From positions 1 to 44,931 of the IMG/VR virus record IMGVR_UViG_3300013126_000060: 44,931 bases of DNA. One strand, given 5' to 3'. This DNA is from a virus. The translations under genes were made by a program, and so were the position numbers. The notes below the pieces were generated by a model, which made no database searches, was not told where the DNA came from, and was given only the letters and a program-made list of their open reading frames with translations. Shown here in pieces: positions 12,887-43,869 of this stretch; position 1 is the first letter of the stretch, and each line of letters opens with the position of its first letter.

Positions 12887-12897
12887 CAAATAATAAA

Positions 12898-14000: not shown

Positions 14001-14010
14001 TAAATCAAGC

Positions 14011-17863: not shown

Positions 17864-17868
17864 TCAAC

Positions 17869-19499: not shown

Positions 19500-22400
19500 A
19501 TGATTTCACCTGGAGGAATTAAAGCATTAAATCTTATTAAACAGGGAGTAGCACCTGATGTAGCAATGTCTCAGGCTGCTAACTACAATATTGAACTTGC
19601 TACTAGAAGAAATCTAATGACAAGTTCATTAGGTGCTCCATCTACTCAAGTATCAGCTACTCAACCTATTTCTTCGGCAGCTATTCCAGATGGACAATCT
19701 TTAAGTACTTTGTTTCCTGGTAAATCTCCCTATGCTAAAGCAAATCCTAATACGCCTTCATTAACTAGGATGCCTGTTTTTGGTTCAGCCATTGATAATG
19801 CAAGTGAAGTTAATAAAGTACTAAAGACAATACCTAACGCTAATAAGATACCTGCTATTCCGCGGACAAATTACTTTGACCAAAAAGTAATTAATAAAGC
19901 AATTACTTTTAGTAACTTACCTAAGATAACCGAAAGATTTACAGAAAAAGTAACTACTCAAACAGAAGAAGAAAAGAAAAAACTAAGAGACTATTTCAAT
20001 ACTCCAAAACCCATAACTGAAAAACCTATTGAAATGGGTATAAGTGATGAGTTGCAGATGATGTTAAATCGTTCTCTACTCAATGGTACTCCTATTGCTG
20101 CTGCAGCTAAGTTTCTTGATGACAATCAACTTAAAAGTTTTAAAACTACTGCAGATTTTCTTGAGGGGAAGTCTATTATGCTTGAGGACCAACAAAGAGT
20201 TAAACCAGGAGTAAGAGCAATAAGACCAACAATTATACCTCAAGACAAAGGTGTATCTCCAGAAGACTTAGTTTATAAAAAAAGCATCAAACCAATAATG
20301 TTGCCACAGGCAACTCCTTACTATAAAACTAATTATAGTGAGTTTGAAAAAGTAACAGCAGATTTTATAGATGATGAGAATAATAAAACACTTCCCCAAA
20401 TACAACAAAACTATAGTAAGATAAAAGATGTAATTAAAAGGGAGAGTCAAAAAGCAGCACTTGACCCTTACCGTGGTCAAATTACAATGGATGAAGACCA
20501 ATCTGTTTTAAATGCTGGGGTAATTGGTAGATATAATGAGTTTGAGAGGGGAATAACTTCTAGTTACGAAAAAAGATACTTATTTAAAAAAGCTGAAATA
20601 GAATACAATAGAATACTTGAATTTACAAAAAACTCACCAACCCCAGATAAAGATGTAGAGTCTTTAATTAAAGAGGCTTTTAATAAAGCTTTAGGCTTTG
20701 CAGCTATAGGTAAAAAATCTTCTGACATATTAAAAGAGATTCATCCAGATTTATACATTAATAGACCTCTTACAGATGAGGATAAAGAAAAAGGGGGACC
20801 AAAATACGGTTACACTTTGGGTATTGGATTTTTAGATGCTTTTGAAAAAGGACAAATAAAAGAGTTGGGTGTATTAGATAGAAATGACCCATTCATAGAT
20901 AATACATTCAGGAATAAACTATTGTATCTTAAGACAATGATGGATAATGGTATGCAGAGAGCAAACTACAATCATCAGCTTGAGTTATTTAAAAAGAAAG
21001 AAAGTATCTATAACGAAGCAGCTAAGAAACAATTAACTAAAGAAGAATCAGATGTAATCAATAGAACTTTTAGTCAAATAGATAAAGAAATAAAAGCATC
21101 AGATAAGTTTGGTTCTAGTTTATTAAAAGTACAAGGAAAAGAAAATTTACTTAAAAACCAAGAACTTAAGTTTGTTGCTGGAACTTATATAGAAGATATT
21201 TTCGAACAACAAAAAGAAAGTGAGGCATATACAAAAGCAGGAGGAGGTATACAATTTAATCCTTCAATATACCTACCTGGTGTTGGTATGCTTATGCATG
21301 ACTATAAAAGTAAAGCTAGAAGAGATGTTTTTGTTAGAACATCTCAATATCTTGGTAAGGGGGCACTTGATTTAGGATTAAACTTAGTTGCATTTGGAGC
21401 TAATGTAGTTGGATTAGGAACTAGATATTCAAGAATTCAAAGAGTCGTAGACGAAGCAACAACTCCTATAGAGTTACATGACTTTAATAAACTTGATAAG
21501 TTTGGAAATCCAGTTTCCGACAATCAAGCGTTTTGGAAAGATAAATATGGAAAAACACACTATCAATTTAGTGGCAGTTTGTATCAAGGTGCACAAATGA
21601 CACCATTAATTGTTGCTACTGTATTTGGTGGACAAGGTATTGCTTCACTAGGAGGTAGAGCCTTTAGTGGGGTAACTAAATTGAGTAGTAGGTTTTCTTC
21701 AGCTGGCAGAACATTAATTAGTTCTAGAGCTTCTTCAGCATTTGCAACCACTTTTGCAGAGACAGGAAGTTACGCTACAGCATTGACAAGAACAATGGCC
21801 AGCAGTGCTAATCCAATTATTAAAGCTGCTGCTTATAGAGCACCTGCTATGTTAGCTATGGGTCCTATGGTATATTCACAATCTTTTATACATGCATACA
21901 ATGATATGTATGAAAAAGGTATTGAAGATGCTAGAGAAAAAGCACATGCAATAGCAGCAGTAAGCACTGCTATAGAAATAGCTACTGAAAACATATTTCC
22001 TGATATGAAGTTCTTAGATGACTTTGCTCAGAAGGGAGTTACTTTCGGAGGTAAGTGGAAAGGTACACCAACTCAATGGGAAACTTTATACAGTAGTGTT
22101 TATGGTAATGTATTTAGTAATAGAACATTACAATATTTAGCAGCAAACAGTTATAAGAGAATTAATCAAGGATTAGCTGGTGCACGTTTTATGATTGCTC
22201 GTGGTGTAGAGGAAGGAATTGAAGAAGTTTCAGCCGAACTAATGGACTATGCTGCACAAAATGCAGGACTAGCTGCAATGCAGGGTGAAAAGCCAAGAGA
22301 GTTGACTCTTGAGGATTTATTAACTGCAGCTACTGGTGCTTTCTTTGGTCCTCCTATTGGAATAGGAAAACAAATAAAAAACTACTCTAAAGAAAGAAAC

Positions 22401-25400
22401 AACAGAATGTTATTTGACATTGCTGTAAATGGAGAATATTATCAAAACAAAGTATTGGAAGCTCAAAAGCTAGGTGAGATAACTAATGAGAATGCAGCTA
22501 AAGTTTTAGGAAAAATAAATGAAGTACAAACTAAAATAGACAACTATAGAGTTAACAACTTAAGGAGGGGAAGCAGTGCACAACAAATGAAAACTGTTGA
22601 GAGTTTATTTGCAGACCCAGAGTTACAATATGACTACTTCAAAAAGATAATCCAAAAAGAAGAACTCGATAAGAAACTACTCGATATTGATAATAAACAA
22701 TATACAGAAGAAGAAAAAAAGAAACTGTTTGATGAGGCTGCAGAAAATACTAAAGCTATAAATGAATACAAAAGAAGAGCTTCTTTATATGAAAATTTAA
22801 CTGAAGAAGACAAAGACCAAATCTATGCTAATACAGTACAGAATAAAAAAAGACTGTCTCAGTTTGCAACAACAGAAAGTTTAAGTAAGTCAATATTAGA
22901 TGCAACAGAAATAATAGCAAAAGCACAAGCTACAAACAAACCTGAGAATTATATTAATCATTTAAGAGATTATCGAGATGAGTTACTTAATATAAGAGAA
23001 GCTAGAGAAGCTGCTAAACTTGATGCACAAGATACAAATACTTATAACCCTATAATTAAATCTTTAAATACTGAGGGAAAAGCTGGACCAATAACAGAGT
23101 CTCCTAAATCAAAAGAAGACGCAATAAACACTATAACACAGGTTTTATTGAATCCAGAAACTCGTGCAGATGTGTCATCAACACTGTCGGGTGAATTTAA
23201 TATAGAGTTAGAGAAAATAGAAAACGACTCAAATGAACTAATAAATAATTATATTGAATCTCTAAATAACAATGCAGTTGCAGCATTACCTAGTAGTACC
23301 ATTATTGATGAAGAGGGGAACTTAGTTGAGTCTACAACTGAAGGAAGAGAAAAACCCGCAAAAAAATATAACAGTATTGAGGATTTAAACGATTCCCAGA
23401 TTAGTGAACTAGAGGAATTACTAGATGAACTTGAAAGAAAAAGAGATATTCTTACTAATAGAGTTAATAATATTGATTCTTCTATCTCTCAATACATAAA
23501 GAATGGGGTTGATGCTGGAACTATAACTGCTGAAGATGCAAAAACTATAATAGAAGAAGTTGGCAAACTAAATTCAGCAGTTACCTCTGCTTATATCGCA
23601 GGAGAATTAGATAGTCAAACTATATTTGATAGTCCAGAAAGACTGGCTGAATATATTTTAGAAAACCAAGCAGTAGTTGATAAGAGAAAAAAGGAGTTTG
23701 ATGCTGCGGTAGAAAAAGCTATAGAAGAACAAAGAAAACAGAAAGAAGCAGAACTAGGAAAAGAAGCTGCAGCAGAAAGTCAAAGAGGAGATGTAGTTAG
23801 TACAGAAAAAACAGATGAAGCAACAACTAGTGAAGTTGCTAATCCCTCTACTGAAGTAACCGCAACCACAAGTGAGGTTGTTGTAACAACTACTCCTGAT
23901 GGACAAGTACAAGTAGAGCCGCCTATTATTCAAGTAAGTAGTGATAACACAGTAACACTAACTGTACCAGAACTTATACCTACAGATGTAACTCCAGAGT
24001 TAACTGAGGTACTTACAGCACTTGAGAGCGTTCCTACTACAGTTATTATTTCAGATGAAAATAACATCACAGGAGAGATAAGTACTGAAGAAGTTGATAA
24101 CCCTGAATATACTAAATTGATTGAAGCAGGACTTCAGCAAGTTGCAAAAGCTAAAACCTTAAAAGGTGCACAAGCAATAATGGCAGCTATGATGACTTCT
24201 ATAAACAAGTCGTCTTTAAAATACACTGATGCAGAGATTGGTGAGACACTAGTTCAAATGGGACGTATGGCACGTAATCAACCAATGTTTGAGGAGGACT
24301 ATACTCACTTGTTTGATTTACTCCGTTTAACTACAAACTTTGAACAGGACTTCAAAGGAATAGAAGACAGACAGTCTGCTGAAGAACTTGGTATATCAGA
24401 AAACCAAATAGCTAGGAAAGCACAAGTAGAAGCTAGAATAGTTGAACTCAATAACATAATTAATAATAGTCTTGCATCAATAGCAGACAATGATAATGTG
24501 AGTGAAATTCAAAACGCTTGGAAAACTATTACCGCAGCCAAAGCAGAGCTAGAACAGTTAGGTAAAGAACTTCCTGAACTAGCTAACATGATTTCAGAAA
24601 AGATTGAATCACTACCTTCTCAAACTAAAAAAACAAACCAACTCCCAGCAGTATCAGAAGAAGAGCAAGTTAAGATAGAAGAGAACAAAGGTGTAGCAAG
24701 AACTAGTCCTTTATTTAAAAGACAAACTGATGCCTCACACTTTAATGTTCAACAGAAGATAATTGATTCACTCCAAAAAGAGTTCCGTGATACTCCAGTA
24801 GCTTTAGTAGATATGTTTACTGTAATTGAAGAAGTTCTTGGTGAAGAGACTCTTACTAGACTTGTTGACATATTTGATGAAGTAACTGCAGACCAAAAAC
24901 CCTCACCCGAAAGACTTGCTCAGTTAAGAGAATCTTTTATTGGATTATTCCCAGAGGGTTTTATGAAGAAAAGTGCTATTGAATATATATTCGATAAGCA
25001 AATGCAAGATGGCATATCTGTTACTGATATTGATGCAGTTAATAAACCTAAACTCAACCCAACTCCAGCAGAGATTTATGAAGTAAACCAAGGAAGAAAA
25101 GTAACAATAACTAAACCTGATGGAACAGTTTATCGTGATGTTAAAGTTGCTACCTTTAGAGATGGTAAAATAATTACACTTATAGAAGGAGCCACAACTA
25201 ATAAATGGGTAGTTATAGATTTTGCTACTGATAAAGTAACAGGACTTAATCAACCAATGGAAGGCACTCGTAAGATTACTATCAATGATATAAATGCTTT
25301 GATATTTACTTCAATAGGTAAAGATGGCAAAGTACAGAAGTACAATAAAGATGGACAGAAAACATCTGACGGTAACTTTGGTCTTTTCCTTTACTTACCT

Positions 25401-27719
25401 AAAGCTAATGCTCAGGCAAACGAACTACGTAAGTCTATTGCGTTAGGAAACAAAGTAAAGAAAGAAACAAAACTTGCAAGCAAACCTGTACCTACTTTAA
25501 CTGTAAAAGCAGATGGAGTTAGCGAAGTAACTGGTTATGAACTTGAGTATTCTTTGGGCAACTTTACCCCTGTAATAAACACTCCTACTGCAGTAGACCA
25601 AGATAAAAATAATGAACTACCTTCTTCTATTTCTACTAATAGCAGACCTAAAGCAATTAGTCAAGCTGATACAGTAGAAAAACTAGATAAGGTTATTGCA
25701 GATTCTAAGAATATCTCAGAACCTGATAAAGAAGGATACAACGTAAAGGGTAAAAAGTTTGAACGTCAATCAAACTTTGTACGAAGAATAAATGGAGAAC
25801 CTAAAGTTAAGTCTAATATCAATATGGAGAGAGGAGCCGGTGTAGGTAACTTACTTGATATTATTGGTAGGGATGTACTAGGAGGTGTTACAGTTAAGTC
25901 AAAAGAAGAATATGTTTCAGAAGCTGAAAAAATGGCACTTAACTCTAAATTAAATGACGGTAAAGGATTTAAGTTGAACATCACTCAAGAAGCTTTTGAT
26001 AACATAGTTGCTGAGCTGACCGAACTTAAAAACGAACTTGAAGGCAAAGGATGGGTATTAAGAACACAAAACCTTGTAGTTTATAGAGAGTATACCGAAG
26101 CAGAAAAGAAAGCAAGCGGTTATGATGGTGTAGCCGGTGCAATGGATATTGTTGCAGTTGACCCTGAAGGAAAGATGCACATTATTGACCTAAAGAACAA
26201 AGTATTTAACTCTAAAGAAAAGTTCACAACAGAACTGTTCTCAGGAACAGAAAGAGTAAAATCAGCTGTAAGTAAGTGGGCAACTCAACAAACAGTATAC
26301 GGACTACTTAGTGAAGACTTTGGTTTAAGTGTAGGAAGTATTAATGCATTTGCTTTTGCTTCAGAGTATGTTCCAGGGGAAGCAGAAAATAGTATAGACA
26401 TATTAGGTCTTACTATGGCTAAGAATAAAACTGAAGTTCCTGCTGCACGTAGGAGTCAATTCTCAGATAAGATTATTAGACTTATGTTTGATGCAAACAT
26501 AACTAATAAACTAGATGCAGTATCTGTAAGTAAGAGAACAATGCAATCTGCTACAGTTACTCCAGTTACTCCAGCTACTCCAACTACTACCGTAGTTACT
26601 GAAGCTTCTGTTTCTGATAAGAAAGCTGATATAGAAAGAAGAAAAGAAGAAGCTAAAAATAATCCTGTTTCCGAACCTGTTGAGTATGCAAAAGCGGTTG
26701 ATGAATATAAAGCAACTGAATTAGGTAGTAGCGAAGATGCAAAAAATAAAAAAAATAAGGTTGTAGAAGAGGCGCAAACAAAAGAAGGAAAAGCATTTGT
26801 AGAAAATCAAGTAGCACAGCTTGATTATAATGATGATGGAACTATAACGGTTTATAGAAGCGGAACTATGCAAGAAGGTCATAATCCTGCTACCACAAGT
26901 AGAAAAACCGCTGAAATCATTGCAAATGAAAGAAAAAAACAAGGACTTTCTTCTGATATAATTGAAGTTAAAGTTGACCCTTCTGATATATCTGCTGTAA
27001 TTCCAGGCATTGAAAGTGAGGTGTTTGTTAAAGTTGACTCAACCAATAAGGAGAGGATTGACAGTAATACAAAAAAAGAACAAAAGTCAAAAACACAATT
27101 ACAAGCAGAAAAGAAAAACCTCAATGATGAATTAGCTAAAACTAAACAAGCGTTAGAAAAAGCAAAAAAAGACAAGGAAAATGGTACTTTTAAGTTTTCA
27201 GATAGTGTGTATAAAGATGTAGTAAAAAAACAAGAAGCTAAAATAAAAAACTTAGAATGGCAGTTAAAAAAGATTGATACAGAATTATCTGCTTTAGAAG
27301 CTAAACCTACAGAAGTAGAAACAAAAAGAGTTGCAACAACACAACTTAGATTTGCAAAAGTGGGAGATGTACTGTATGATAAAGAAGGAAATAAATATGA
27401 AATTCTTTCTAAAAAAGATAGATACGGAAGAAGTTTAGAATACAGAAAGAATGATAAAGAATTAGGTGAGATTAATCCAAAAACAGTAAGCTCGTACGTA
27501 AATTCATTTGCAATGCAAACACTTTACTATGAAAAACCAGAAGTTCCTGTTTCTGATACAAAAGTTATAGGAGTTGAAAATTTAACTGATATAAATGACC
27601 CCGAAACTACAAGAGATATATTATCTTCGCAAGGCATAGATGTCGATGATTTACTTGGTAAGATAAGTGCAAACCCAAATGACATTGATACAGATATTAC
27701 TAATAACCTCTGTGACTAA
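19500..27719 (+). CDS. Giant virion cargo protein with nuclease-like and ADP-ribosyltransferase-like domains
   Basis: A 2739-residue protein. Order seen: helical N-terminus; hydrophobic and small-residue-rich stretches (about 620-640, 699-719, 945-958) around an EEGIEEVSAEL motif (about 903-913), as in membrane-active internal virion proteins; long coiled coils (about 970-1430); a Thr/Val/Ser-rich linker (about 1430-1520); helices; a beta domain (about 1860-1960); then a PD-(D/E)XK nuclease-like domain with GAMDIVAVD (D2216) and HIIDLKNK (D2230, K2232), followed by the usual helix TQQTVYGLL. Next is an ADP-ribosyltransferase-like domain with VYRSG (R2453), TTS (2465-2467) and ESE (E2505, E2507), then a coiled coil and a small beta domain (GDVLYDKEGNKYEIL). 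It ends NNLCD. No transmembrane anchor or signal peptide is clear. Known polyvalent virion proteins of phages combine such domains. Delivery into the host with the DNA is inferred. Confidence 0.65.
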   Translation: MISPGGIKALNLIKQGVAPDVAMSQAANYNIELATRRNLMTSSLGAPSTQVSATQPISSAAIPDGQSLSTLFPGKSPYAKANPNTPSLTRMPVFGSAIDNASEVNKVLKTIPNANKIPAIPRTNYFDQKVINKAITFSNLPKITERFTEKVTTQTEEEKKKLRDYFNTPKPITEKPIEMGISDELQMMLNRSLLNGTPIAAAAKFLDDNQLKSFKTTADFLEGKSIMLEDQQRVKPGVRAIRPTIIPQDKGVSPEDLVYKKSIKPIMLPQATPYYKTNYSEFEKVTADFIDDENNKTLPQIQQNYSKIKDVIKRESQKAALDPYRGQITMDEDQSVLNAGVIGRYNEFERGITSSYEKRYLFKKAEIEYNRILEFTKNSPTPDKDVESLIKEAFNKALGFAAIGKKSSDILKEIHPDLYINRPLTDEDKEKGGPKYGYTLGIGFLDAFEKGQIKELGVLDRNDPFIDNTFRNKLLYLKTMMDNGMQRANYNHQLELFKKKESIYNEAAKKQLTKEESDVINRTFSQIDKEIKASDKFGSSLLKVQGKENLLKNQELKFVAGTYIEDIFEQQKESEAYTKAGGGIQFNPSIYLPGVGMLMHDYKSKARRDVFVRTSQYLGKGALDLGLNLVAFGANVVGLGTRYSRIQRVVDEATTPIELHDFNKLDKFGNPVSDNQAFWKDKYGKTHYQFSGSLYQGAQMTPLIVATVFGGQGIASLGGRAFSGVTKLSSRFSSAGRTLISSRASSAFATTFAETGSYATALTRTMASSANPIIKAAAYRAPAMLAMGPMVYSQSFIHAYNDMYEKGIEDAREKAHAIAAVSTAIEIATENIFPDMKFLDDFAQKGVTFGGKWKGTPTQWETLYSSVYGNVFSNRTLQYLAANSYKRINQGLAGARFMIARGVEEGIEEVSAELMDYAAQNAGLAAMQGEKPRELTLEDLLTAATGAFFGPPIGIGKQIKNYSKERNNRMLFDIAVNGEYYQNKVLEAQKLGEITNENAAKVLGKINEVQTKIDNYRVNNLRRGSSAQQMKTVESLFADPELQYDYFKKIIQKEELDKKLLDIDNKQYTEEEKKKLFDEAAENTKAINEYKRRASLYENLTEEDKDQIYANTVQNKKRLSQFATTESLSKSILDATEIIAKAQATNKPENYINHLRDYRDELLNIREAREAAKLDAQDTNTYNPIIKSLNTEGKAGPITESPKSKEDAINTITQVLLNPETRADVSSTLSGEFNIELEKIENDSNELINNYIESLNNNAVAALPSSTIIDEEGNLVESTTEGREKPAKKYNSIEDLNDSQISELEELLDELERKRDILTNRVNNIDSSISQYIKNGVDAGTITAEDAKTIIEEVGKLNSAVTSAYIAGELDSQTIFDSPERLAEYILENQAVVDKRKKEFDAAVEKAIEEQRKQKEAELGKEAAAESQRGDVVSTEKTDEATTSEVANPSTEVTATTSEVVVTTTPDGQVQVEPPIIQVSSDNTVTLTVPELIPTDVTPELTEVLTALESVPTTVIISDENNITGEISTEEVDNPEYTKLIEAGLQQVAKAKTLKGAQAIMAAMMTSINKSSLKYTDAEIGETLVQMGRMARNQPMFEEDYTHLFDLLRLTTNFEQDFKGIEDRQSAEELGISENQIARKAQVEARIVELNNIINNSLASIADNDNVSEIQNAWKTITAAKAELEQLGKELPELANMISEKIESLPSQTKKTNQLPAVSEEEQVKIEENKGVARTSPLFKRQTDASHFNVQQKIIDSLQKEFRDTPVALVDMFTVIEEVLGEETLTRLVDIFDEVTADQKPSPERLAQLRESFIGLFPEGFMKKSAIEYIFDKQMQDGISVTDIDAVNKPKLNPTPAEIYEVNQGRKVTITKPDGTVYRDVKVATFRDGKIITLIEGATTNKWVVIDFATDKVTGLNQPMEGTRKITINDINALIFTSIGKDGKVQKYNKDGQKTSDGNFGLFLYLPKANAQANELRKSIALGNKVKKETKLASKPVPTLTVKADGVSEVTGYELEYSLGNFTPVINTPTAVDQDKNNELPSSISTNSRPKAISQADTVEKLDKVIADSKNISEPDKEGYNVKGKKFERQSNFVRRINGEPKVKSNINMERGAGVGNLLDIIGRDVLGGVTVKSKEEYVSEAEKMALNSKLNDGKGFKLNITQEAFDNIVAELTELKNELEGKGWVLRTQNLVVYREYTEAEKKASGYDGVAGAMDIVAVDPEGKMHIIDLKNKVFNSKEKFTTELFSGTERVKSAVSKWATQQTVYGLLSEDFGLSVGSINAFAFASEYVPGEAENSIDILGLTMAKNKTEVPAARRSQFSDKIIRLMFDANITNKLDAVSVSKRTMQSATVTPVTPATPTTTVVTEASVSDKKADIERRKEEAKNNPVSEPVEYAKAVDEYKATELGSSEDAKNKKNKVVEEAQTKEGKAFVENQVAQLDYNDDGTITVYRSGTMQEGHNPATTSRKTAEIIANERKKQGLSSDIIEVKVDPSDISAVIPGIESEVFVKVDSTNKERIDSNTKKEQKSKTQLQAEKKNLNDELAKTKQALEKAKKDKENGTFKFSDSVYKDVVKKQEAKIKNLEWQLKKIDTELSALEAKPTEVETKRVATTQLRFAKVGDVLYDKEGNKYEILSKKDRYGRSLEYRKNDKELGEINPKTVSSYVNSFAMQTLYYEKPEVPVSDTKVIGVENLTDINDPETTRDILSSQGIDVDDLLGKISANPNDIDTDITNNLCD

Positions 27720-27736
27720 TAAAACAAATAACTACC

Positions 27737-30700
27737 ATGAGTGGATGTAGTATTAATAATAAAGAGAACAAAGAATACAAAAGTAAGTATGAAGGTATCT
27801 TCGATACATACTTCATGCGATACGTATGGGATAAGAATGGAGAACTTCCATTAGATAAAACACGTATTGGTGGTGAGGTTGTAGATAGTCAACTTTACAA
27901 AGACATACTAAATAGTGAGTATGCAAAAGGTGACGAGAGGAAAGCACTTGAGTTAATGAGTCGCACCTTTACAACAAACTTTGAATCTACTTATGAACGT
28001 AATGAAGATGGTCAACATACCCTCGACCAAGTAGTTGATTACATAAGTAAAAAAGAATACGAAAAAGCCAAGATAAAAGAAAGAAGACTTGCCGAAATAA
28101 ATACTCCCTCATCTTATACTATTAACTTTCCTGAAGCTACAGTTTTTGGAAAAACAACTAGAATATTTTATACAAGAGAACAAGGTATTCAGATATTCAG
28201 AACTTTAGAACTTTATGGGGGGTTGTTAAATAACTGGAGTGCTGTAAAAGCAAAACTAGAAGAAGCAAAGCTAGAAACGCTAGAAAGAATACAGAAGGGA
28301 AAAAGAAAAGAAGGTGATGATTTTAAATTAATTAACTTAATTGCTATTACTGAAAACTTTGAACTATTCAAAGATTGGTATTCAAAGCAAGAAGATAGAG
28401 TAAGCATAGAAACAGAAGACCCCGATATTCAAGATTCCGTTACTGCACTAACTAAAGATAAAGACATCTCCCAACAGAGGAGAGCATCTAAGAAAGTAGT
28501 TAGGATGGTTGCTTCTTTACCTAGTTATAGAAAAGTGTTAGCAGGTGAGATTAATCCTGAAACAAATCAACCATACGAAATAGATAATTATGTACTAGAA
28601 ATAAATAGTGTACTCGGACTTCCTATGTCAGGAAACTTTTCAAGTAACTGGAATCTATTAAGTGCTCAACTCAGCGGTACGCAGAGGTATGAGGATATGT
28701 ATCAAAAAGTTATCAAACTTGGAGATGTTAGACCGCAGTTTAAAGAACTAGCTGCACAAATGGTAGACCCCACTCTTCCTGCTTCAACTATTGACGGAGC
28801 AAATTTTGTCAACATGATGGCTTTAAGAAGTATTATGTCTAATCCTGAAGTAAAACATTTTGTAGTTAACCAAGAAACAAAACAAGATGGAGCAGTTGTA
28901 GTTACAGTACAACAAAAAGGAAAGAGAAACTTACGTAATCCTATTGCAATGTATGATAGGACTTATTTTGCTTTTCAGTCGGACAGATATAAAGCAGTAG
29001 ATACAGACGGAAACGACTATGTTAATATCGAGAATATCTACAATGACTTTAATGATTTTTTTACTAGGTTAGGTGCTCACTTAGCAAGAAAAGACAAGAA
29101 CGGCAAACGTTATGAAGCTATAACTTTCTTTACTAAAGACAACATACAAGAGGGTAATCGTTTCTTAAAAGCTATTGGACTTGGGTTAAGTAACACTGAT
29201 TTCCAAAAAGAAGCTAATAGACCAGGACTAACTGAGTTTTATGGAATAGAAGCCTCGAAGTTAAAAGCTATCTTTGAGAAGCTTAAAATAGTTCACGGCT
29301 TAAATACGCTCGCAGAAAATGATGCTCAGACAATAAAAGTAAGAAACATACTTGATTTTATACATAATCCAGTTAGTGAGATTCTAGGTGTTAAGGGTGT
29401 TCTTTCTGATGATACAAAGATTAAAATTGGAGTATTGGCTCAAAATAAGTTTATTACTTACCAAGCCGATAAAATAGAAACGAATATTAAAAACTACTTA
29501 GGTAAAAAGTCTACAGAACTTAAAGGCATACTTGAATACTTCGATAGTTTTGAGTCAGAGTTTTATAGTACATCCTATCTTACAGCTGAAGACAAAAAGA
29601 AGTTTGGAAGAACAAGTTGGTTTTACTTAACTCAAACAACCAGTGCTGTTAATAGTGCTGAAAACTACGAGGAGTTAATTAACACTCCAGGATTTGAAAG
29701 ATTTGATTACCGAAAGAATCCTGATATGCTTGGTTCGATTTGGTTAAATAGACTTTTTGGTTTACCACTTACTAAAGCAGAGATTGAAAAGAACGCACTA
29801 AGTACATATACTAAAACTAAAATACCATCATTAGGTGGCATTAATAATGCCATAGATATATTTGACTTTGGTGGAATGGAAGTAAAACAAGGTGGAAACA
29901 AAAAAGGATTCCACACTACTAACCTTCACCCAGAAGATAAAATGATGCAAGATATATTCTCTTTCTTCCAAACAGGAAACGTAGAGAATATAAGATTTGG
30001 TGATAAGACAAGTTCTTTCTCAACAATGTTTACTAACGCAGCTTTAGCTGATAGAGTTTACATTCCATTTAACTACGACAATATAGTTGACCCAAAAGAA
30101 GACATTGCAGTAGAAGAACAACTTGTAAATATATTTAATAACTATCTTGTATCAGAGTTTGGTAGAGTCATTTCAATTCTAGAAGAACAAGAAGGCACGC
30201 CAAAGTCAACATATCAAAAGTTAGGTAAGAAGTTATTTATCTTCAAGGATATTTTGTCTCAAGAACTACTGGATAAAATATCAAATGCTAGTTCGGTAGA
30301 AGAACTAAGAGTACTTTACGGAGAAGCTAAATCTCAACTTCCTGCAGGATTAAAAGCCTATTTTGATAAACAAGCAGATAAACTTGTAAACATGATAGTT
30401 GATACCTACACACAGGAAATTAGTCTCCAAACAGGTTTACCATTAAGTGCGGAGGAGAGACTGAATGCAACTGCAAACATTCTTAACAAACACAACTTTA
30501 TTAGTTTACAGATATTACCTATTGATGTTAGAAACGCACTAAGAGCATTAGACAAAACTAAGATTGACATTAATGCTCAGAACTTAAAATACATAGCTAG
30601 TTACTACGTTAAAAATGGATTCATTAATAATGTTGAGTTCTTAAAGTTCTTTGTAGGTGATATAGCAAACTTTGATAAGACAGGTGCAGGCAACTTCCGT

Positions 30701-36340: not shown

Positions 36341-36361
36341 CTCAAGTAACTAAAAATAAAA

Positions 36362-37012
36362 ATGGCAAACGGTTGTAAAATAACATCAAGAGAAATACAA
36401 AAAGGATTAACTGACAAAGGAATTATTATTGCTCAGTCAGTTGATAGTACATTCACAGTAAGTTCTATAGGAGAACTTGTGTTACCTCTAGACTCAAGTA
36501 ATAAATTTAAAGACGAACCTTATAAGTTAAGAAGGATAGTAGATAGAACTGTCAATAAACTAATTAAGGAACTAAGTATGGACCCAAAGAAGTTTGGTTT
36601 TGTATTTGGAGGTGTTACTTATACTGACAGTGCAGCAGTCCAAATCTTAGTTACTCCACAACTATTTGCGTCTTATCAAGTTAAAAACGAAGAAAAGACT
36701 ATTGAGGAGGCTTTTCCAGTTAACCGCACACCGACACCTACTTTTACCCAGGAGACTGCATACAGACCACAAGGGTTCTATAAGAATGATTATGCTTTAA
36801 TGGAACAAGAACTTAAAGACTTAGAGAGTCTAGAAGAAGCGTTTGCTCCATCAATAACTAGTGTTGAAGTTGCCGAAGATGTAAAGAGTACCTACGTCCC
36901 ACCATCTGCTCCTGTTCAACTTAAGTTAGACCTTAGATTATCTAAAGAACAACCTCCTGAAAAAGGAGACTTAGGTTCAATAGGATTTGAGGAGATAGCT
37001 TGTGACGTATAA
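36362..37012 (+). CDS. 216-residue protein between the giant cargo genes
   Basis: An alpha/beta protein starting MANGCKITSREIQKGL and ending EEIACDV. Residues about 55-110 (KLRRIVDRTVNKLIKELSM, then FGFVFGGVTYTDSAAVQIL) look like one folded domain. The remainder (about 115-200) is Pro/Glu-rich and probably extended, with PTPTFTQETAYRPQ. It sits 21 bases after the polymerase gene in the same unit and shares the short Cys-containing termini of its giant neighbours. Small proteins at this place in crAss-like genomes travel with the polymerase, so it may be a polymerase partner or assembly factor. I do not recognise a named family. Confidence 0.45.
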   Translation: MANGCKITSREIQKGLTDKGIIIAQSVDSTFTVSSIGELVLPLDSSNKFKDEPYKLRRIVDRTVNKLIKELSMDPKKFGFVFGGVTYTDSAAVQILVTPQLFASYQVKNEEKTIEEAFPVNRTPTPTFTQETAYRPQGFYKNDYALMEQELKDLESLEEAFAPSITSVEVAEDVKSTYVPPSAPVQLKLDLRLSKEQPPEKGDLGSIGFEEIACDV

Positions 37013-37018
37013 GAATAC

Positions 37019-37048
37019 TTGCCTAACTAAAAAAATAAACTAAATTTG
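37019..37048 (+). promoter_or_regulatory. Bacteroidota-type promoter P3 for the 2245-residue gene
   Basis: TTG (37019-37021), 19 bases, then TAAATTTG (37041-37048), a full TAnnTTTG match. Only five bases separate the box from the ATG at 37054, so the transcript would begin at or next to the start codon (leaderless mRNA). Confidence 0.75.
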
Positions 37049-37053
37049 TACTG

Positions 37054-40000
37054 ATGTCTTGTTTTGCTAAAATAAAATCACCTATGTCAGGTAACGATGT
37101 TACTAGTGTAGCATACTACCAAACAACTACATTCTTCCCACCTGAAGTAGGAAGAACTATATACGAAGCCACAACCACTACTGCTTTTAAAGTAGACTTA
37201 GGTTTCGACTGGACTAAAAGGCAAATAGGATACTCAGATAAACTAAACTTTCATGGTGAACCTACTATGGAAGAAATGAATAGTATTCTTAACCTTAGAC
37301 TTAGTCAAAGACAAATAGACGCAGCTAATGAAATAGAGGAGTTTGCAAAGGAGGGGTACTTTAATGTAGGGTTTACTAATATAAATGCGTTTGAACTTAT
37401 CGAGGGAGAAGTAAATCTAAACCCTAAATACGAACACGTAGAAACAGAAATCACAGCAAGAGACGGTAAGTATTATATAAGTGTCAAACCTCTGCAATCA
37501 GACAAAGTACAAAAGCCAGTAAGTAAAGGTTTCTTAAATAGAGTTGGATTTAGCCCTTTATTAATTAACAGTGTTGAGGAGTTTAGTAATGCAAACCTAA
37601 GTGAACTTATGGACTCTTTAATTAAAAGTCCTGAGATAGAAGAGTTCCAAAGAGAAATGCTTAAAAGACTCCGCAGGTTAATGAAAGTTAACCCAAGTCT
37701 TAAACTTACAGTGTTTGACGATACAGCAGTTGACGAAAACTTTCAAAGGTCATTTTACGACCCAGCTACTAACACAGTATACATAGGTAAAACTTTAAGT
37801 TCTAAGTTTGGAGATAAAGAATTAGTACGTGACTTAATTCACGAAGCAGTTCACGCATATACTATTTCTGCAATAAACAACCCAAGAACAACTCAAGAGT
37901 TACAGTTTAAGAACGAAATGGTTAAACTGTATGAGATTTATAAAGATACCTTTAAACTTCTTCAGAACTGGTACGGATTACAAAACGTAGAAGAGTTTGC
38001 AGCTGAGTTTTTATCTAATCCTTATTTTAGAGATGGTCTTAAGGAAGCAGAAGAGGGAACAACACGTAATCAAAACTTTTTCTTACGTACACTAACTAGT
38101 ATTCGCAACTTCTTTAGTTCTATATTCTCAGGAGTAGTAGATAGAAACACATCAATGTTTACTCAAGTAGAGAACGCATTAGATAACTATCTTAACTATC
38201 TTGAGAGTATGGGTGATATGCCTGACCATTCTGCAGAAAACCACATAAGATTTAATAGTACTTATCAAGGAAGACAAGCTAGAAATATGGGACAAAGAAC
38301 CCCACTATTTGAAGACTTTTACAACTTCGTAGAGAACTCAGTTAGTACTTCTTCTTGGAAACAACTAGCTCAATCTATTAAAGAACTAGACCCAAGATTA
38401 AATAGTTTGCAGAGATTGCAGACTAGATTTGGTAACCTTTCAATACCTTCGGCAAAAGGAACTTTAAACGACTCTATAGGATATTTAGAATCTATGGGTC
38501 GCATACTAACTAACCTACAAACATCTGTTGATGCTTATGATAATGATAGTACAAACTATACCTCAGAGGAGTTAGTTAGAATCTACCACAATGCACTTTC
38601 CGTATCAGAACTTTTTGAAGACCAATTAAAAGGGTTTAACTTACTTCTTGCATCCTTAGATACTTATATGCCCAAAGAGGAGTATACTCAAGAGGGCAAA
38701 GCACAAGAACTTGCAAGCAAACGCGAAGCTATACGTGCTCAAGTACCAGATGTAGATAACTTAAAAGAAAGCATCAAGAAAAAGATTAAAGAGATTGATT
38801 CAAAGATAGGTACTCTTAACAAAAGTTCAAGAGAAAACTTAATCAAATCTTCAGCTGCACAAATAGTTCCTATCTTCAAAACTTTTATTGAAAAACAAAA
38901 TGACCCATCTAGCCAACTGAATCAAGAAATAAAAGCAATAGAAGAAGAACTTGTAATAGTACGCAGACAAAAAAGTAGTAACTTATATCAGAACTCAGCA
39001 GTAGGAGCTATTCAAAAAAGAGGACTAGAAGCAAAAGAAAGAGACCTAGATGAAAGGCTTAATCAACTTAATAAGTTTAAAAGTTTCATACCAACAACTG
39101 AAAACATAATAACACTATTTACAAATGCTAGTGCTTCAGGTATGTCTGATGCAAATATGTTTGTTAGGTACTTATCAATAGGTAATATGACTGGCAGACC
39201 AATACTAGATATTATGAAGCAATTCATAGATGTACATATTGTAGAAGCAGAAAATGAAAGTATTAAGAGTCGTAATAGAATCCAAGCACTAGAAAAAAGA
39301 ATAAGTGACCTAAACAAACGTAGAGATAGAAAAAACAAACTAGGTTCTGCATTAGGTTCTTTGAGTGCTTTTTACGAGGGGTTCACTCGTCAGGTAGAAA
39401 TGGACTACTATGATGCTAATGGCAAAAAAACTACAATAAAACAAACAGCTTATCAAACAAGATTTAAAGAAGCTGAGTTTCAAAACGACTTAAAGGCAAA
39501 ACAACAAGCATTAAACCAAGCTCTTAAAAAAGGTGACGAGGTAGAAATAGCAGAAGCAGAAAAAGCATTTAATGACTTTGTAGAGGCTTATGCAGTTCGT
39601 CCTTTTACAGATGAGTATTACGAAGCAGAATCACTACTTACTGATGAGGCAAGAGAGGCTAGACAAGAGTTATTTGATTTGATTAATGCAACAAATGACA
39701 TATTTGATGAAGAAGATATTTTTTCTGAAGATATTCTTTACAGTCCAAAGAACACCAAGAAACAACTACAAAGAGATTTAGAAAGACTAGGTTCTATCTA
39801 TAATAAAGACGGAAGTGAAAAACCCGTAGGAAGTAAAGAAAGAAATATAGCAGAGTCTATTATTGCCTATAAGAAAGCACGTAAGGAACTTGAGATTACC
39901 GAGTATATTATTCCAGATAGTGTATTAAATAAGTTTAAGTCAAAAAAGAATGAACTTACTAGAAAAGTAGATGAAGCTAAAAGTAAAGTAAACTCTGCTC

Positions 40001-43000
40001 AGGAGGATGTAAATAATGACGTAGCAAATCCAGTTAGTGCAGAACTTACTCAGTCTTTGAATAATAAACTAACTGACGCTAAGAACAAACTTAAAGAAGC
40101 TACTGATGTATTAAATAAGTGGCTTAACGAAAATACCCGTACTGAAATTGACCCAAAGTTCTTTGAAAAACAAAGAATGATTGCAGACAAGATAAAACAG
40201 ATTCTTGCTAAGTACGGAGAACAAGCAGAAGTTCCTGAGTTATACCAACAGATATTTAGTACTGCACGGGGATATAGAGATAGGGATGGAGTAGTTATCG
40301 GTTCTGATATGTCTGAAGGTTTAATCCAAAAGATAAACGAACTAGAAACTAAACTAGAGAATCTTAAATCAGAATCACGAAAGTCTCGTAAGATTAGTGC
40401 CGCAGATAAAAAAACACTTAAAGATTTATTCCAAGCACTCAACGAACTACAAAGAAAAGAAGAAACAGAATACTACCACGAGACTGTAGCAGAAATTAAG
40501 AACAACTTAAAGAGTGAGATACTGGCTGATGCAGATAGAACCAATACAATAAAAGCAGAAGCACAAGAAAAAGTTGATTACTTTATTAATACAGGAGATG
40601 ATTCTGTGTTTAGAGGAATACAGGTAGATGACATACAAGAATTTGCAGATGTTGAGTTTGGTGAAACAGTAAACACTCAACACCGTGCAGCTTTGATTCA
40701 ACAGGTATACGATAAGTTACTCCAAAGAGAAGTTCAAAACGATTATTACCAATCTTCTTGGTATAAAAATAACCACATCTTAGTTGACAAATCTTACATA
40801 GATGAAAACACAGGCGAAGAGGTTCCGCTGTTTGAAAGTAGACCAATTTACATTTGGAATAAAACCATACCTAAAGATAACAGATACATAAAACAACAAA
40901 GTCCTAGCTTTACTTGGTATATACCTAAAATCAGGGATGCTTTTAAAGTAAAGGATGCTAAGTTCTTAGGTGAATTTAGACCTAGAGCAACAGCAGATAG
41001 ACGTTATGCAAACGAAGAGTATGAGAAAATAGAAAGAGAACAACCAGAACTTAGAGAGTTAATTGATGAGATGGTTGGTATTTACGAGGAGCAACAAAAA
41101 GCTTTACCTGTTTCTCAAAGAAATGAAGGATACACAGTAATTAATCGTGGTAAAACAGGCAATGAAAAAACACTTGACACATATACTAGATTTGGATACC
41201 GGGTTATAACTGGTTGGGATAGTTTTAAAGTTCTATTAAAGAGAAACATACCAGGAGCAAATGCAGAAAGTGAAGAAGTAGAAGTTGATATTGAAACTGC
41301 AAACAAACAACTAGGTAAAGGTAGACTAGTTCGATTAGTTAAGACACGATATAAAGAACCACTAAGTAGCAATCAAGTAAGTAGTGATTTACTAGGTTCG
41401 CTAAGTCAGTTTTCTTTATATGTATCTGAGTTTAAAGCTTTAAGAAAAGCAATGCCAGTTGTTTTTTCTCTCAGAGATGCTGCAGCCGAATCATCTCAAG
41501 GAAGAGAAACAGAAGTCAAGATGCTTGATGACCTTGTTTATAGATTCTTTTATGGAGAAGAATTAAAATTTAGAAATGCAGAAAAGGTAATCCCCGAATT
41601 TGCTATGCCTATATACAGAGGTCTCATAAGACTTTTGAGTAAGACATTTAGATTTACCCAAGCAAGGGTATTGATATTTAACTTACTTAGGTGGCCAAAG
41701 AACTTAATTACTAACATACTTAGGGCAACAGTCAATGCTAAAAAGTACGGAGTAAGAAGACGAGATACTTTGTTAGGAATGGCTAAAGGATTTTGGAACT
41801 ATGCAACAATGCTTTCTCTTCATGCTGGAAACAGAAAGATGAATAAAGAAGCAATGTTTATGACTTACTTTAGAGCTATTCCTTCAGCAGACCCAAGCAG
41901 ACAAGCAGGAAAAATACATCAGCACGCAATCTTTAAGTACATGAATGGTGGGTTTTTTAATGATGCTACTGGTGGATACTTAGAAGGAGCTAGTACTAGG
42001 GGTGTATACGAGTCTATAATGAAGCAATCTAAGATACCAATTACTATAGATGGACAAACTCGCTACGTAAATGTAAGAGATGCTTATGATTTAATTGACG
42101 GTACATTCGTTCCTAAAGATGGAGTATTTGGACTTGAGATGAATTTGATGCGTCAGTTAATCCTGGAAAGAAAATCAAACTTAGAAAGTTTCTTAATTGA
42201 CGCAGGAGTAACTAATAGAGAAGAACTTCCTGCTAAATTACGTATTCAGTATGACAACCTCTTAAAAGCACAAGACCAAAAGATAGCAGCACTTGAAGAG
42301 AGAAATAAACCTAAGAAACTAAAACTACAAAACTTAGAACAAGCTATTCGAGACGACATCCATCAGATGTATACTAGTACTCAGGGTAACTACTTTAAGA
42401 GAAGTCGTTCTCAGTATGAGACTAGTTTGTTTTTAGGTATTTTGTTTTCAATGAAGCGTTGGTTAGTTCCCTCTCTTCAAAACACATACGGACAAAGAAG
42501 GTTTAATATAAACACTGGAAGAATTGACCAAGGATACTTAAATTATTTTTTCATTGAGTTTTTGTTTAGAAATCTTAAATACTTAGCAACAGGTCAAAGA
42601 CTATCACTAGGTTCTACTAGTCACCAAAAAGAAAGACTACACAGAACTGTAATTGATACTGCAGTTACTTATAGTATGATGGGAATAAGTCATTACCTAG
42701 GAGCAGCAGCATTAGCAGCTATGGCAAAACTTGGAGAAGGTGACGATGATGATAGTAAAACTTTTTGGACAGTTCTAATGGCTTTAATAGCAGCAGGTAC
42801 TTACGATGAATACACAACAGTAAGACCAGAAGCAGCCTATAACTATTACGTTAAGACATTCAAAAAGAAACCACTTGAAAAATATGGTACAGATGAAAAT
42901 GCTGCCGAAAGTGTAATAAGACACTTAATTACTTCAGCTATTGGTCAACAATCACGTAGCTTTTTTGAATTTTTAGAAGGTATTGAAATGATTGGAAAAG

Positions 43001-43791
43001 GAATATTAAATCCTAATGAGACTTATCAAGAACAATACGGAGATAAATATCAAATAAAAGATGCAGGTCCAATGCAAGGAAAAAGGCTTATAGTTGCAGG
43101 ATTAGCAAGAACTATGGGTATTGAGTTAGGTATTAAGCCTCTTCAAAATGCAAAAGCTATATCTCAAAGATATATTAATCAAATGCGATATACTCCTTTA
43201 TTGGGTACACCTGATGTTGCTGGCGATATAGTTATGATTGATAATGAGATTGATGAGATAAAGAAAGATATATTCAAAAGACCTCAAAAACTAATGGAAG
43301 ACCTAGCTAAAATAGAAAGGTCACAAATGATTGCTACCAAAAAAGGATTAAAAGTAAATGAAAACGAAAGTGAGGAATTCATAAATAAGTATCTTGAGTC
43401 GGAAGAAGGAACTGTTATAATAGATAAGATGGCAAAAATAATAGCACTTCAAAGACAAAAGAAACAGATAATTAATGAAAACATTATTCTTCTGGAAAAA
43501 GAAAATCAAAAATTAATAGGACAATACCAAGGAAGAAAAGATGCCGAAACACAAGAAAAAATAGCTAAAAAACTTCTTGGAAAAAAAGGCATTGGTGGTA
43601 TAGAAAAAACAGAACAATACGAGGTTGAGAAGGGTAGAGAAAATCTTTGGCAAAAAGCAGTAATGAAGAGACTTAATATGGAGGTAGAAAAAAATAAATC
43701 CTTAATTAATGAAGATTTTGAGAAAGCAAAAACAACTCTCCCAGAAGACATTGAGTTTAATGAGGACGGTCAGTATCAACCATTTAGATAA
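37054..43791 (+). CDS. Giant virion cargo protein with zincin protease-like domain
   Basis: A 2245-residue protein starting MSCFAKIKSP. Residues about 205-330 make a metallopeptidase-like domain: a strand pair (FDDTAVD, TNTVYIGKT) before the zinc-binding helix DLIHEAVHAYT (H263, E264, H267), and downstream NVEEFAAEFLSNP with E313, E314 and E318, one of which could be the third ligand. This is the layout of polyvalent-protein zincins in phages. Long coiled coils follow (about 490-770 and 940-1200). The last third (about 1536-1960) has aromatic and hydrophobic stretches (LIFNLLRWPKNLITNILRA; 1870-1892; 1904-1916), as in membrane-associated ejection domains, then another charged coiled coil to the end. 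By size, order and termini it is a partner of the polymerase protein packaged in the virion. The substrate is unknown; self-processing, host proteins and peptidoglycan are all possible. Confidence 0.6.
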   Translation: MSCFAKIKSPMSGNDVTSVAYYQTTTFFPPEVGRTIYEATTTTAFKVDLGFDWTKRQIGYSDKLNFHGEPTMEEMNSILNLRLSQRQIDAANEIEEFAKEGYFNVGFTNINAFELIEGEVNLNPKYEHVETEITARDGKYYISVKPLQSDKVQKPVSKGFLNRVGFSPLLINSVEEFSNANLSELMDSLIKSPEIEEFQREMLKRLRRLMKVNPSLKLTVFDDTAVDENFQRSFYDPATNTVYIGKTLSSKFGDKELVRDLIHEAVHAYTISAINNPRTTQELQFKNEMVKLYEIYKDTFKLLQNWYGLQNVEEFAAEFLSNPYFRDGLKEAEEGTTRNQNFFLRTLTSIRNFFSSIFSGVVDRNTSMFTQVENALDNYLNYLESMGDMPDHSAENHIRFNSTYQGRQARNMGQRTPLFEDFYNFVENSVSTSSWKQLAQSIKELDPRLNSLQRLQTRFGNLSIPSAKGTLNDSIGYLESMGRILTNLQTSVDAYDNDSTNYTSEELVRIYHNALSVSELFEDQLKGFNLLLASLDTYMPKEEYTQEGKAQELASKREAIRAQVPDVDNLKESIKKKIKEIDSKIGTLNKSSRENLIKSSAAQIVPIFKTFIEKQNDPSSQLNQEIKAIEEELVIVRRQKSSNLYQNSAVGAIQKRGLEAKERDLDERLNQLNKFKSFIPTTENIITLFTNASASGMSDANMFVRYLSIGNMTGRPILDIMKQFIDVHIVEAENESIKSRNRIQALEKRISDLNKRRDRKNKLGSALGSLSAFYEGFTRQVEMDYYDANGKKTTIKQTAYQTRFKEAEFQNDLKAKQQALNQALKKGDEVEIAEAEKAFNDFVEAYAVRPFTDEYYEAESLLTDEAREARQELFDLINATNDIFDEEDIFSEDILYSPKNTKKQLQRDLERLGSIYNKDGSEKPVGSKERNIAESIIAYKKARKELEITEYIIPDSVLNKFKSKKNELTRKVDEAKSKVNSAQEDVNNDVANPVSAELTQSLNNKLTDAKNKLKEATDVLNKWLNENTRTEIDPKFFEKQRMIADKIKQILAKYGEQAEVPELYQQIFSTARGYRDRDGVVIGSDMSEGLIQKINELETKLENLKSESRKSRKISAADKKTLKDLFQALNELQRKEETEYYHETVAEIKNNLKSEILADADRTNTIKAEAQEKVDYFINTGDDSVFRGIQVDDIQEFADVEFGETVNTQHRAALIQQVYDKLLQREVQNDYYQSSWYKNNHILVDKSYIDENTGEEVPLFESRPIYIWNKTIPKDNRYIKQQSPSFTWYIPKIRDAFKVKDAKFLGEFRPRATADRRYANEEYEKIEREQPELRELIDEMVGIYEEQQKALPVSQRNEGYTVINRGKTGNEKTLDTYTRFGYRVITGWDSFKVLLKRNIPGANAESEEVEVDIETANKQLGKGRLVRLVKTRYKEPLSSNQVSSDLLGSLSQFSLYVSEFKALRKAMPVVFSLRDAAAESSQGRETEVKMLDDLVYRFFYGEELKFRNAEKVIPEFAMPIYRGLIRLLSKTFRFTQARVLIFNLLRWPKNLITNILRATVNAKKYGVRRRDTLLGMAKGFWNYATMLSLHAGNRKMNKEAMFMTYFRAIPSADPSRQAGKIHQHAIFKYMNGGFFNDATGGYLEGASTRGVYESIMKQSKIPITIDGQTRYVNVRDAYDLIDGTFVPKDGVFGLEMNLMRQLILERKSNLESFLIDAGVTNREELPAKLRIQYDNLLKAQDQKIAALEERNKPKKLKLQNLEQAIRDDIHQMYTSTQGNYFKRSRSQYETSLFLGILFSMKRWLVPSLQNTYGQRRFNINTGRIDQGYLNYFFIEFLFRNLKYLATGQRLSLGSTSHQKERLHRTVIDTAVTYSMMGISHYLGAAALAAMAKLGEGDDDDSKTFWTVLMALIAAGTYDEYTTVRPEAAYNYYVKTFKKKPLEKYGTDENAAESVIRHLITSAIGQQSRSFFEFLEGIEMIGKGILNPNETYQEQYGDKYQIKDAGPMQGKRLIVAGLARTMGIELGIKPLQNAKAISQRYINQMRYTPLLGTPDVAGDIVMIDNEIDEIKKDIFKRPQKLMEDLAKIERSQMIATKKGLKVNENESEEFINKYLESEEGTVIIDKMAKIIALQRQKKQIINENIILLEKENQKLIGQYQGRKDAETQEKIAKKLLGKKGIGGIEKTEQYEVEKGRENLWQKAVMKRLNMEVEKNKSLINEDFEKAKTTLPEDIEFNEDGQYQPFR

Positions 43792-43805
43792 GTGAGAAAA
43801 AACTC

Positions 43806-43835
43806 TTGACAAAAAATGCTAGATGAATATCTTTG
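43806..43835 (+). promoter_or_regulatory. Bacteroidota-type promoter P4 for the holin gene
   Basis: TTGACA at 43806 gives the -33 TTG; 19 bases later TATCTTTG (43828-43835) matches TAnnTTTG. The ATG is 34 bases downstream. The leader holds an isolated ATG-TAA (43851-43856). A separate promoter lets the lysis gene be expressed independently of the giant gene. Confidence 0.75.
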
Positions 43836-43869
43836 TAAACATAGTAAGATGTAAACTATAACTCAGGAA

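What the first reader, a model, noticed from the sequence alone, without database searches (positions are those of the whole stretch)
19500..43791. Virion-delivered multi-enzyme arsenal built around the RNA polymerase
Three giant proteins (2739, 2867, 2245 residues), separated by only one small gene and a promoter, hold polymerase, nuclease-like, ART-like, SLOG, DUF4326-like and zincin-like modules plus membrane-active stretches. The known crAss-like concept is a packaged polymerase. The additional effector modules, several linked to NAD/ADP-ribose or nucleotide chemistry, point to an early-infection host-control or anti-defence system that to my knowledge has not been described as a unit.
Basis: inference. 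Interest (0 to 1): 0.8.

Follow-up and report, generated by a model that had tools for sequence, protein, structure and literature searches.

The report
Swappable enzyme modules on phage polymerase
This crAss-like phage encodes three giant proteins of a kind that related phages pack in their particles and inject, and its polymerase carries an enzyme module that distant phages swap between otherwise very different polymerases, which suggests a rotating set of early-infection tools.

Summary
Three intact giant ORFs (2739, 2867 and 2245 aa) of a crAss-like phage encode the 'transcription cargo' whose counterparts are proven virion proteins in phi14:2 and crAss001. Single-sequence domain searches fail, but profiles from about 100 related loci support four modules. 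These are a DxDxD virion RNA polymerase (vRNAP), a RecB/Cas4-type PD-(D/E)XK nuclease, a minigluzincin protease, and a cpYpsA-type SLOG domain fused to the vRNAP C-terminus. DUF4326 is only a weak likeness. The ART and membrane claims are not supported. The concept is known (polyvalent proteins; Crassvirales cargo). I found two further points described in no paper searched. First, the vRNAP tail is a swap site: the window's SLOG module is 93% aa / 91% nt identical to one in a phage whose adjoining vRNAP core is only 25% identical, and core and module identities do not correlate (13 phages, 78 pairs). Other tails carry NADAR, cpYpsA, ART-PolyVal, AlkB-like or SF1-helicase modules. Second, the same SLOG and zincin modules occur in Schitoviridae (N4-type) vRNAPs, which have an unrelated polymerase fold. 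Best reading: co-injected polyvalent effectors tethered to the first polymerase, probably countering NAD/ADP-ribose-based or other early defences. The function is inferred. New variant of a known kind.

The parts
19500..27719 (+). Giant protein 1 (P0001, 2739 aa), counterpart of crAss001 gp47 / position of phi14:2 g067
   Evidence: ORF; shares the PDDEXK domain with crAss001 gp47 (L005) and 32-56% identity stretches with L006; no homology to phi14:2 g067 detected
25842..26363 (+). PD-(D/E)XK nuclease domain of the RecB/Cas4/MGME1 type, P0001 2115-2288, catalytic D2216, D2230, K2232, Q2263 intact
26844..27029 (+).
   Evidence: no Pfam/ART-PolyVal match, no homologues, low-confidence model
27737..36340 (+). 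Giant protein 2 (P0002, 2867 aa), crAss-like virion RNA polymerase with a C-terminal module tail
30950..32536 (+). RNAP core used in profile A1 (P0002 1072-1600), DxDxD (DYDID) at 32387-32401
   Evidence: 6vr4 (phi14:2 vRNAP) E=1e-131
34802..35209 (+). DUF4326-like module in the vRNAP tail (P0002 2356-2491)
   Evidence: 15 domains in 14 records; Pfam link only sub-threshold in relatives; 76% aa identical to L060 whose core is 35% identical
35594..36280 (+). SLOG (cpYpsA-type) module at the vRNAP C-terminus (P0002 2620-2848); DNA block 35602-36276 is 91-92% identical to unrelated-core vRNAP genes
36362..37012 (+). Small gene P0003 (216 aa); its C-terminal part is the end of the vRNAP polypeptide in relative L009 (and resembles that of L006), i.e. 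a split-off tail
   Evidence: 55% identity of P0003 143-216 to the L009 vRNAP end; 8 loci in family
37054..43791 (+). Giant protein 3 (P0004, 2245 aa), counterpart of phi14:2 g065 (RNA polymerase-associated protein)
   Evidence: phmmer E=4e-17 to g065; tblastn 1e-10
37615..38118 (+). Minigluzincin-like metallopeptidase domain (P0004 188-355), HEAVH at 37840-37854, E314
   Evidence: also found in Schitoviridae vRNAPs
3414..9419 (+). Crassvirus muzzle protein: fixes the phage as crAss-like and the virion block as the neighbourhood
   Evidence: PF25731 crAss_MUZ E=2e-35
14069..19485 (+). P0010 and P0011, in the position of cargo proteins C1/C2 (positional inference only)
   Evidence: gene order; no homology detected

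Best explanation
The three giants are the co-injected transcription cargo of a crAss-like phage. P0002 is the virion RNA polymerase that transcribes the first genes. P0004 and P0001 are its partner proteins, carrying a zincin protease and a RecB/Cas4-type nuclease that are widespread in this cargo. All three work as polyvalent proteins: they ride in the capsid, are extruded through the tail with the DNA and act in the first minutes. The C-terminal tail of the polymerase is a docking site where small enzyme modules (here SLOG plus a DUF4326-like domain; elsewhere NADAR, cpYpsA, ART-PolyVal, AlkB-like oxygenase, SF1 helicase) are gained, lost and exchanged between phages whose polymerases are otherwise about 25% identical. 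Steps: packaging = shown for homologues, inferred here. Polymerase, nuclease, zincin and SLOG folds = supported here by computation. Module exchange = shown here from sequence. SLOG/DUF4326-like action on NAD- or ADP-ribose-derived defence signals = inferred from family precedent. Zincin releasing modules by self-cleavage = inferred.
For: Core profile to phi14:2 vRNAP 1e-131. Counterparts found in virions. Nuclease and zincin active-site residues kept across 43 and 35 domain rows. SLOG fold 3imk Z 11.1. SLOG 93% aa / 91% nt identical to L010 while the adjoining core is 25% aa / 47% nt; Spearman -0.22 over 78 pairs; homologous block with sharp ends at 35602-36276. 71 vRNAP tails contain NADAR (4), cpYpsA (5), ART-PolyVal (3), 2OG-FeII oxygenase (10), AAA_30/SF1 helicase (10) and DUF7831 (8). 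In whole-contig scans of 50 records, by my count 47 of 51 hits to NADAR, cpYpsA, ART-PolyVal, DUF7831 and 2OG lie in reading frames of at least 1,400 aa. ART-PolyVal is present in L006 and L028 as an insert of ~180 aa at residue 146 of the P0004 homologue (L029 has the same-size insert at the same point), absent in the window, L027 and L030. The crass-derived SLOG and zincin profiles hit Schitoviridae vRNAPs (Pylas 6e-55 and 4e-8; A5 1e-25 and 2e-9).
Against: No proteomics or assay for this phage. Single-sequence searches of the window find no module. DUF4326 link weak; ART fails. Several tail modules (AlkB-like, helicase, nuclease) fit DNA processing as well as anti-defence. SLOG relatives also occur as stand-alone genes in other large phages, so delivery with the virion is not required for their use.
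Confidence: 0.6

Rival explanations
1. DNA-entry and repair kit: the modules act on the incoming phage DNA and its ends (RecB/Cas4-like nuclease, DprA-like or other nucleotide-binding SLOG, and in relatives AlkB-like oxygenase and SF1 helicase), protecting, repairing or processing DNA during ejection, and have little to do with host signalling.
For: Nuclease fold nearest to MGME1, Dna2, RecE, AddAB; relatives' SLOG matches PHROG 768 'DprA-like DNA recombination-mediator' at 1e-8; AlkB-like and helicase modules are as frequent as NAD/ADPr ones.
Against: The SLOG fold is closest to 3imk, a putative molybdenum carrier protein, not to a listed DprA structure; NADAR, ART-PolyVal and cpYpsA share the same site and are not DNA-repair families.
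Confidence: 0.25
2. Sensor of the polymerase: the SLOG/DUF4326-like tail binds a host nucleotide (NAD, ADPR or an alarm nucleotide) and tunes vRNAP activity or its partners, rather than destroying a signal.
For: Covalent fusion to the polymerase in all retrieved crAss-like SLOG loci where the core is held; non-catalytic SLOG sensors are known (PMC9503650).
Against: The module is also N-terminal to the core in L024 and in Schitoviridae vRNAPs with an unrelated polymerase fold, and many close relatives lack it (L027, L029, L030, L032-L037), which argues against a fixed allosteric role.
Confidence: 0.12
3. Passive accretion: the tail tolerates insertions and picks up domains by recombination without function.
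For: Tail length after the core ranges from about 30 to 1700 aa.
Against: Glycine-rich and polar residues of SLOG, and catalytic residues of nuclease and zincin, are nearly invariant over very divergent copies; a narrow set of enzyme families recurs.
Confidence: 0.03

Closest known systems
Crassvirales transcription cargo: phi14:2 g067/g066/g065 and crAss001 gp47/gp50/gp49
   Same: Same gene order next to the tail/muzzle block, same vRNAP core, same zincin (g065) and PDDEXK (gp47) domains; proven virion proteins there.
   Different: phi14:2 vRNAP has almost no tail beyond the core (about 76 aa on the same measure); the window's has about 570 aa with a DUF4326-like and a SLOG module, plus a split-off end gene.
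Polyvalent proteins (Iyer et al. 2017, PMC5512222), including N4-type vRNAP with zincin
   Same: Giant multi-activity injected proteins, zincin as hub domain, swapping of domains.
   Different: That paper does not contain the words crAss, SLOG, YpsA or NADAR; the polymerase here is the DPBB two-barrel type, not T7-like.
Viral NAD/ADPr-handling networks (PMC9503650)
   Same: SLOG, DUF4326, NADAR and ART as a co-occurring toolkit, SLOG/DUF4326 predicted to process ADPr signals.
   Different: There the ADPr-processing domains are described as typically stand-alone in phages; here they are fused to the virion RNA polymerase and exchanged as cassettes.
Schitoviridae vRNAP of Klebsiella phage Pylas and Alteromonas phage A5
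   Same: Carry the same SLOG and zincin modules in an injected RNA polymerase.
   Different: Unrelated polymerase fold; SLOG lies N-terminal to the polymerase domains and zincin C-terminal, in one polypeptide.

Membership tests
Crassvirales (crAss-like phage) | Crassvirus muzzle protein in the virion block | tested here: met
   PF25731 E=2e-35
Crassvirales (crAss-like phage) | Giant DPBB-type vRNAP with DxDxD, homologous to phi14:2 | tested here: met
   6vr4 E=1e-131; DYDID
Crassvirales (crAss-like phage) | MCP, TerL, portal set | not tested
   these genes were not sought; the window is a 44.9-kb fragment
Polyvalent proteins | Two or more unrelated enzymatic domains in one polypeptide | tested here: met
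   P0002: RNAP core + cpYpsA-type SLOG
Polyvalent proteins | Packaged and injected with the DNA | not testable with these tools
   met for counterparts in phi14:2 and crAss001; inferred here
Polyvalent proteins | Modules shuffled between architectures | tested here: met
   order and gene of residence vary; identity incongruence
SLOG superfamily, cpYpsA-like | SLOG Rossmann-like fold | tested here: met
   3imk Z 11.1, rmsd 3.9, 149 aligned of 158, next row 5.0
SLOG superfamily, cpYpsA-like | Match to Pfam cpYpsA above cut-off | tested here: not met
   no match in the window; a member of the same module family (L026) overlaps a sub-threshold cpYpsA hit, and tails of other loci carry cpYpsA over cut-off
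PD-(D/E)XK nuclease (RecB/Cas4-like) | D...DxK...Q catalytic set and fold | tested here: met
   Pfam PDDEXK_1 over cut-off in relative L054
Zincin metallopeptidase (minigluzincin-like) | HExxH plus downstream Glu and profile match to a known zincin | tested here: met
   projannalysin 4jix E=4e-7
DUF4326 (PF14216) | Pfam match above cut-off | tested here: not met
   none in the window; best relative E=0.0085, 17.2 bits against 25; called DUF4326-like only
ADP-ribosyltransferase (ART) | Match to ART-PolyVal or another ART family | tested here: not met
   no match at E<=10 in the window, no Pfam hit
ADP-ribosyltransferase (ART) | ART fold | tested here: inconclusive
   AF2 pLDDT mostly 36-73 over the region; the fold search was filled by the nuclease

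The most novel reading that the evidence does not exclude
A shared pool of injected counter-defence modules (SLOG, zincin, DUF4326-like, NADAR, ART-PolyVal, AlkB-like) is passed among phages as cassettes fused to whichever giant RNA polymerase is injected first. This has happened on two unrelated polymerase folds (crAss-like DPBB type and N4/T7-like type), so that being tethered to the first polymerase is itself the selected trait.
Probability: 0.45. Interest if true: 0.78.

Novelty: new variant of a known kind. Interest (0 to 1): 0.6.

Why it matters
crAss-like phages are among the most abundant viruses of the human gut, and how they survive Bacteroidota defences in the first minutes is largely unknown. 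If modules on the virion polymerase are interchangeable counter-defence parts, each phage's tail predicts which early defence it meets, and the module list becomes a directly testable catalogue of anti-NAD/ADP-ribose (and other) activities. The reuse of the same modules on a second, unrelated type of injected polymerase would point to a general delivery principle.

Tried and rejected
Single-sequence Pfam, PHROG and NCBIfam scans of the giants and of the module segments gave nothing significant; relatives' profiles were needed. PADLOC gave no defence-system match except a marginal E=0.011 for the nuclease. PDB sequence-profile searches with SLOG and DUF4326-like alignments gave no hits. Foldseek alone gave no match at E<=0.001 for the tail model; the second look by VIA-align found 3imk. 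That model's DUF4326-like half was barely tested there (the rows are filled by SLOG), so its fold is open. The ART idea was tested four ways (Pfam, tblastn, contig scan, ART-PolyVal) and dropped. Transmembrane stretches were tested by hydropathy and dropped. A P0001 scan of viral contigs found no relative by its patterns, though relatives were reached through the RNAP. P0010/P0011 could not be linked by sequence to crassvirus cargo C1/C2. Loci chosen through SLOG are biased towards SLOG. Among loci chosen by the RNAP core alone (L027-L106, about 70 non-redundant) I count 17 with at least one NAD/ADPr-type module (SLOG, cpYpsA, DUF4326-like, NADAR, ART-PolyVal) in the vRNAP protein, a lower bound because Pfam positions were taken for only 50 records.
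Full report
What the window is. All long ORFs run on the + strand. The 3414-9419 product is a crassvirus muzzle protein (PF25731, E=2e-35), so this is a fragment of a crAss-like phage; the record is a 44.9-kb IMG/VR virus contig. The three giants are intact and of exactly the stated lengths. Gene order is muzzle, several virion-type genes, P0010, P0011, P0001, P0002, P0003, P0004, then a holin-like gene and a metallophosphatase-like gene.

Polymerase. No Pfam or PHROG model recognises P0002 from its own sequence, but tblastn finds 115 crAss-like and other records by it, and a profile of 15 cores matches the solved phi14:2 virion RNA polymerase 6vr4 at E=1e-131. The metal-binding DxDxD is present (DYDID). 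The phi14:2 protein ends about 76 residues past the measuring point after the core, whereas the window protein runs on for about 570.

Delivery. In phi14:2 the genes g067, g066 and g065 carry MS/MS virion annotation. In crAss001, gp47, gp49 and gp50 were found in virions, with up to about 5.5 MDa of cargo space (PMC10172136). P0004 is homologous to g065 (phmmer 4e-17), and P0001 shares its nuclease domain with crAss001 gp47. Packaging here is therefore inferred from homologues, not shown.

Nuclease and zincin. Iterated profiles over 962 ORFs from the fetched loci found the P0001 nuclease in 43 loci and the P0004 zincin in 35, with catalytic residues in 42-43 of 43 and 33-34 of 35 rows. The nuclease model fits MGME1, Dna2, RecE, AddAB and AdnAB (Z 9.8 to 8.5). 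PDDEXK in these giants was already reported (PMC7886860). The zincin profile matches projannalysin (4e-7) and a phage ejection protein, gp48 (7e-6).

SLOG module. P0002 2620-2848 has kin in 22 ORF records; in every crAss-like locus where the core is also held, it is part of the vRNAP polypeptide. Its AlphaFold model (pLDDT mostly over 90) is closest to 3imk, a putative molybdenum carrier protein that I recall as a cpYpsA member, at Z 11.1 over 149 of 158 residues; the next row is 5.0. The motifs NHSGGA.G.D, R109, Q113, D118 and GGT..AV (alignment numbering) are invariant or nearly so across copies 38-93% identical.

Module exchange. Window and L010 share 93% aa / 91% nt over SLOG, but their adjoining polymerase cores are 25% aa / 47% nt identical; L006, whose core is 56% identical, has SLOG at 90%. 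Over 13 phages (78 pairs) core and SLOG identities do not correlate (Spearman -0.22). The DNA similarity starts and stops at the module: 35602-36276 with L010, 35606-36280 with L006, 35613-36270 with L013. The DUF4326-like block shows the same with L060 (76% aa against 35% for the core). In L024 SLOG sits before the core; in L015 SLOG and the DUF4326-like module are reversed; in L010 the DUF4326-like module lies in a different, downstream ORF. Close relatives of the window (L027, L029, L030, L032-L037) lack SLOG.

Other tails. Pfam on 71 vRNAP tails finds AAA_30/SF1 helicase (10), 2OG-FeII oxygenase (10), DUF7831 (8), cpYpsA (5), NADAR (4), ART-PolyVal (3) and zeta toxin (2). Whole-contig scans of 50 records place them: by my count 47 of 51 hits lie in frames of 1,400 aa or more. 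One vRNAP (L060) carries DUF4326-like, 2OG, cpYpsA and NADAR in one tail; L013 and L019 carry NADAR, SLOG and 2OG. In the P0004 homologue, an ART-PolyVal domain is inserted at residue 146 just before the zincin in L006 and L028 (with a same-size insert in L029), but not in the window, L027 or L030.

A second, unrelated polymerase. The window's SLOG matches inside the vRNAP of Klebsiella phage Pylas (39%) and Alteromonas phage A5. These are Schitoviridae proteins with N4-type RNAP domains. The crass-derived SLOG and zincin profiles both hit them (6e-55 and 4e-8; 1e-25 and 2e-9). N4-type polymerases are T7-like, unrelated to the crAss-like type (established knowledge). So two of the window's modules accompany injected polymerases in two lineages.

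What fails. ART, membrane stretches and a confident DUF4326 label. The claimed promoter is doubtful.

How it likely works. The cargo is extruded ahead of or with the DNA; the polymerase starts early transcription; the attached modules act at once, before any phage gene is made. SLOG and DUF4326-like domains have been proposed to sense or degrade ADP-ribose-derived immune signals (PMC9503650). That step is inference, and DNA-entry processing is the main rival.

Known and new. The class (polyvalent proteins) and the cargo are known. In the open library I found no paper joining Crassvirales with SLOG, crAss with NADAR and RNA polymerase, or describing crAss-like phages in terms of polyvalent proteins (one search returned one paper, on a Schitoviridae phage). 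Most subscription papers, including the phi14:2 structure paper, are not held, so novelty of the exchange is likely but not certain.

Noticed in passing
L116 (Spirosoma terrae NZ_JAAFZH010000004.1 470005-482598): A 573-kb contig of a bacterial genome holds a 2847-aa frame (open at its 5' end) with a crAss-like RNAP core (E=3e-24) and the same SLOG module: a possible integrated crAss-like element.
   Followed up: partly
window 36362-37012: P0003's C-terminal part (143-216) is the fused C-terminal end of the vRNAP in relative L009, with a similar end in L006; in the window it is a separate gene, so the vRNAP polypeptide end has been split off or fused.
   Followed up: partly
L099 vRNAP residues 3489-3718: DUF7831 appears inserted inside a DUF4326-like domain (halves 3489-3540 and 3663-3718), a nested module.
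   Followed up: no
L002, L003 (cr130_1, cr113_1): Giant vRNAP genes of 4328-5801 aa are open only if TAG is read as an amino acid; they also carry the SLOG module.
   Followed up: partly
window 10049-13800: P0008 and P0009 both match DUF5872 (P0008 C-terminal part at E=3e-13; P0009 N-terminal part sub-threshold, E=0.0016): a small shared domain in neighbouring genes, role unknown.
   Followed up: no
window 13830-14069 and 43791-43870: Intergenic gaps contain Bacteroidota-like promoter motifs (TTG ... TATATTTG and TTGAC ... TATCTTTG, read by eye), consistent with a Bacteroidota host (sequence).
   Followed up: no
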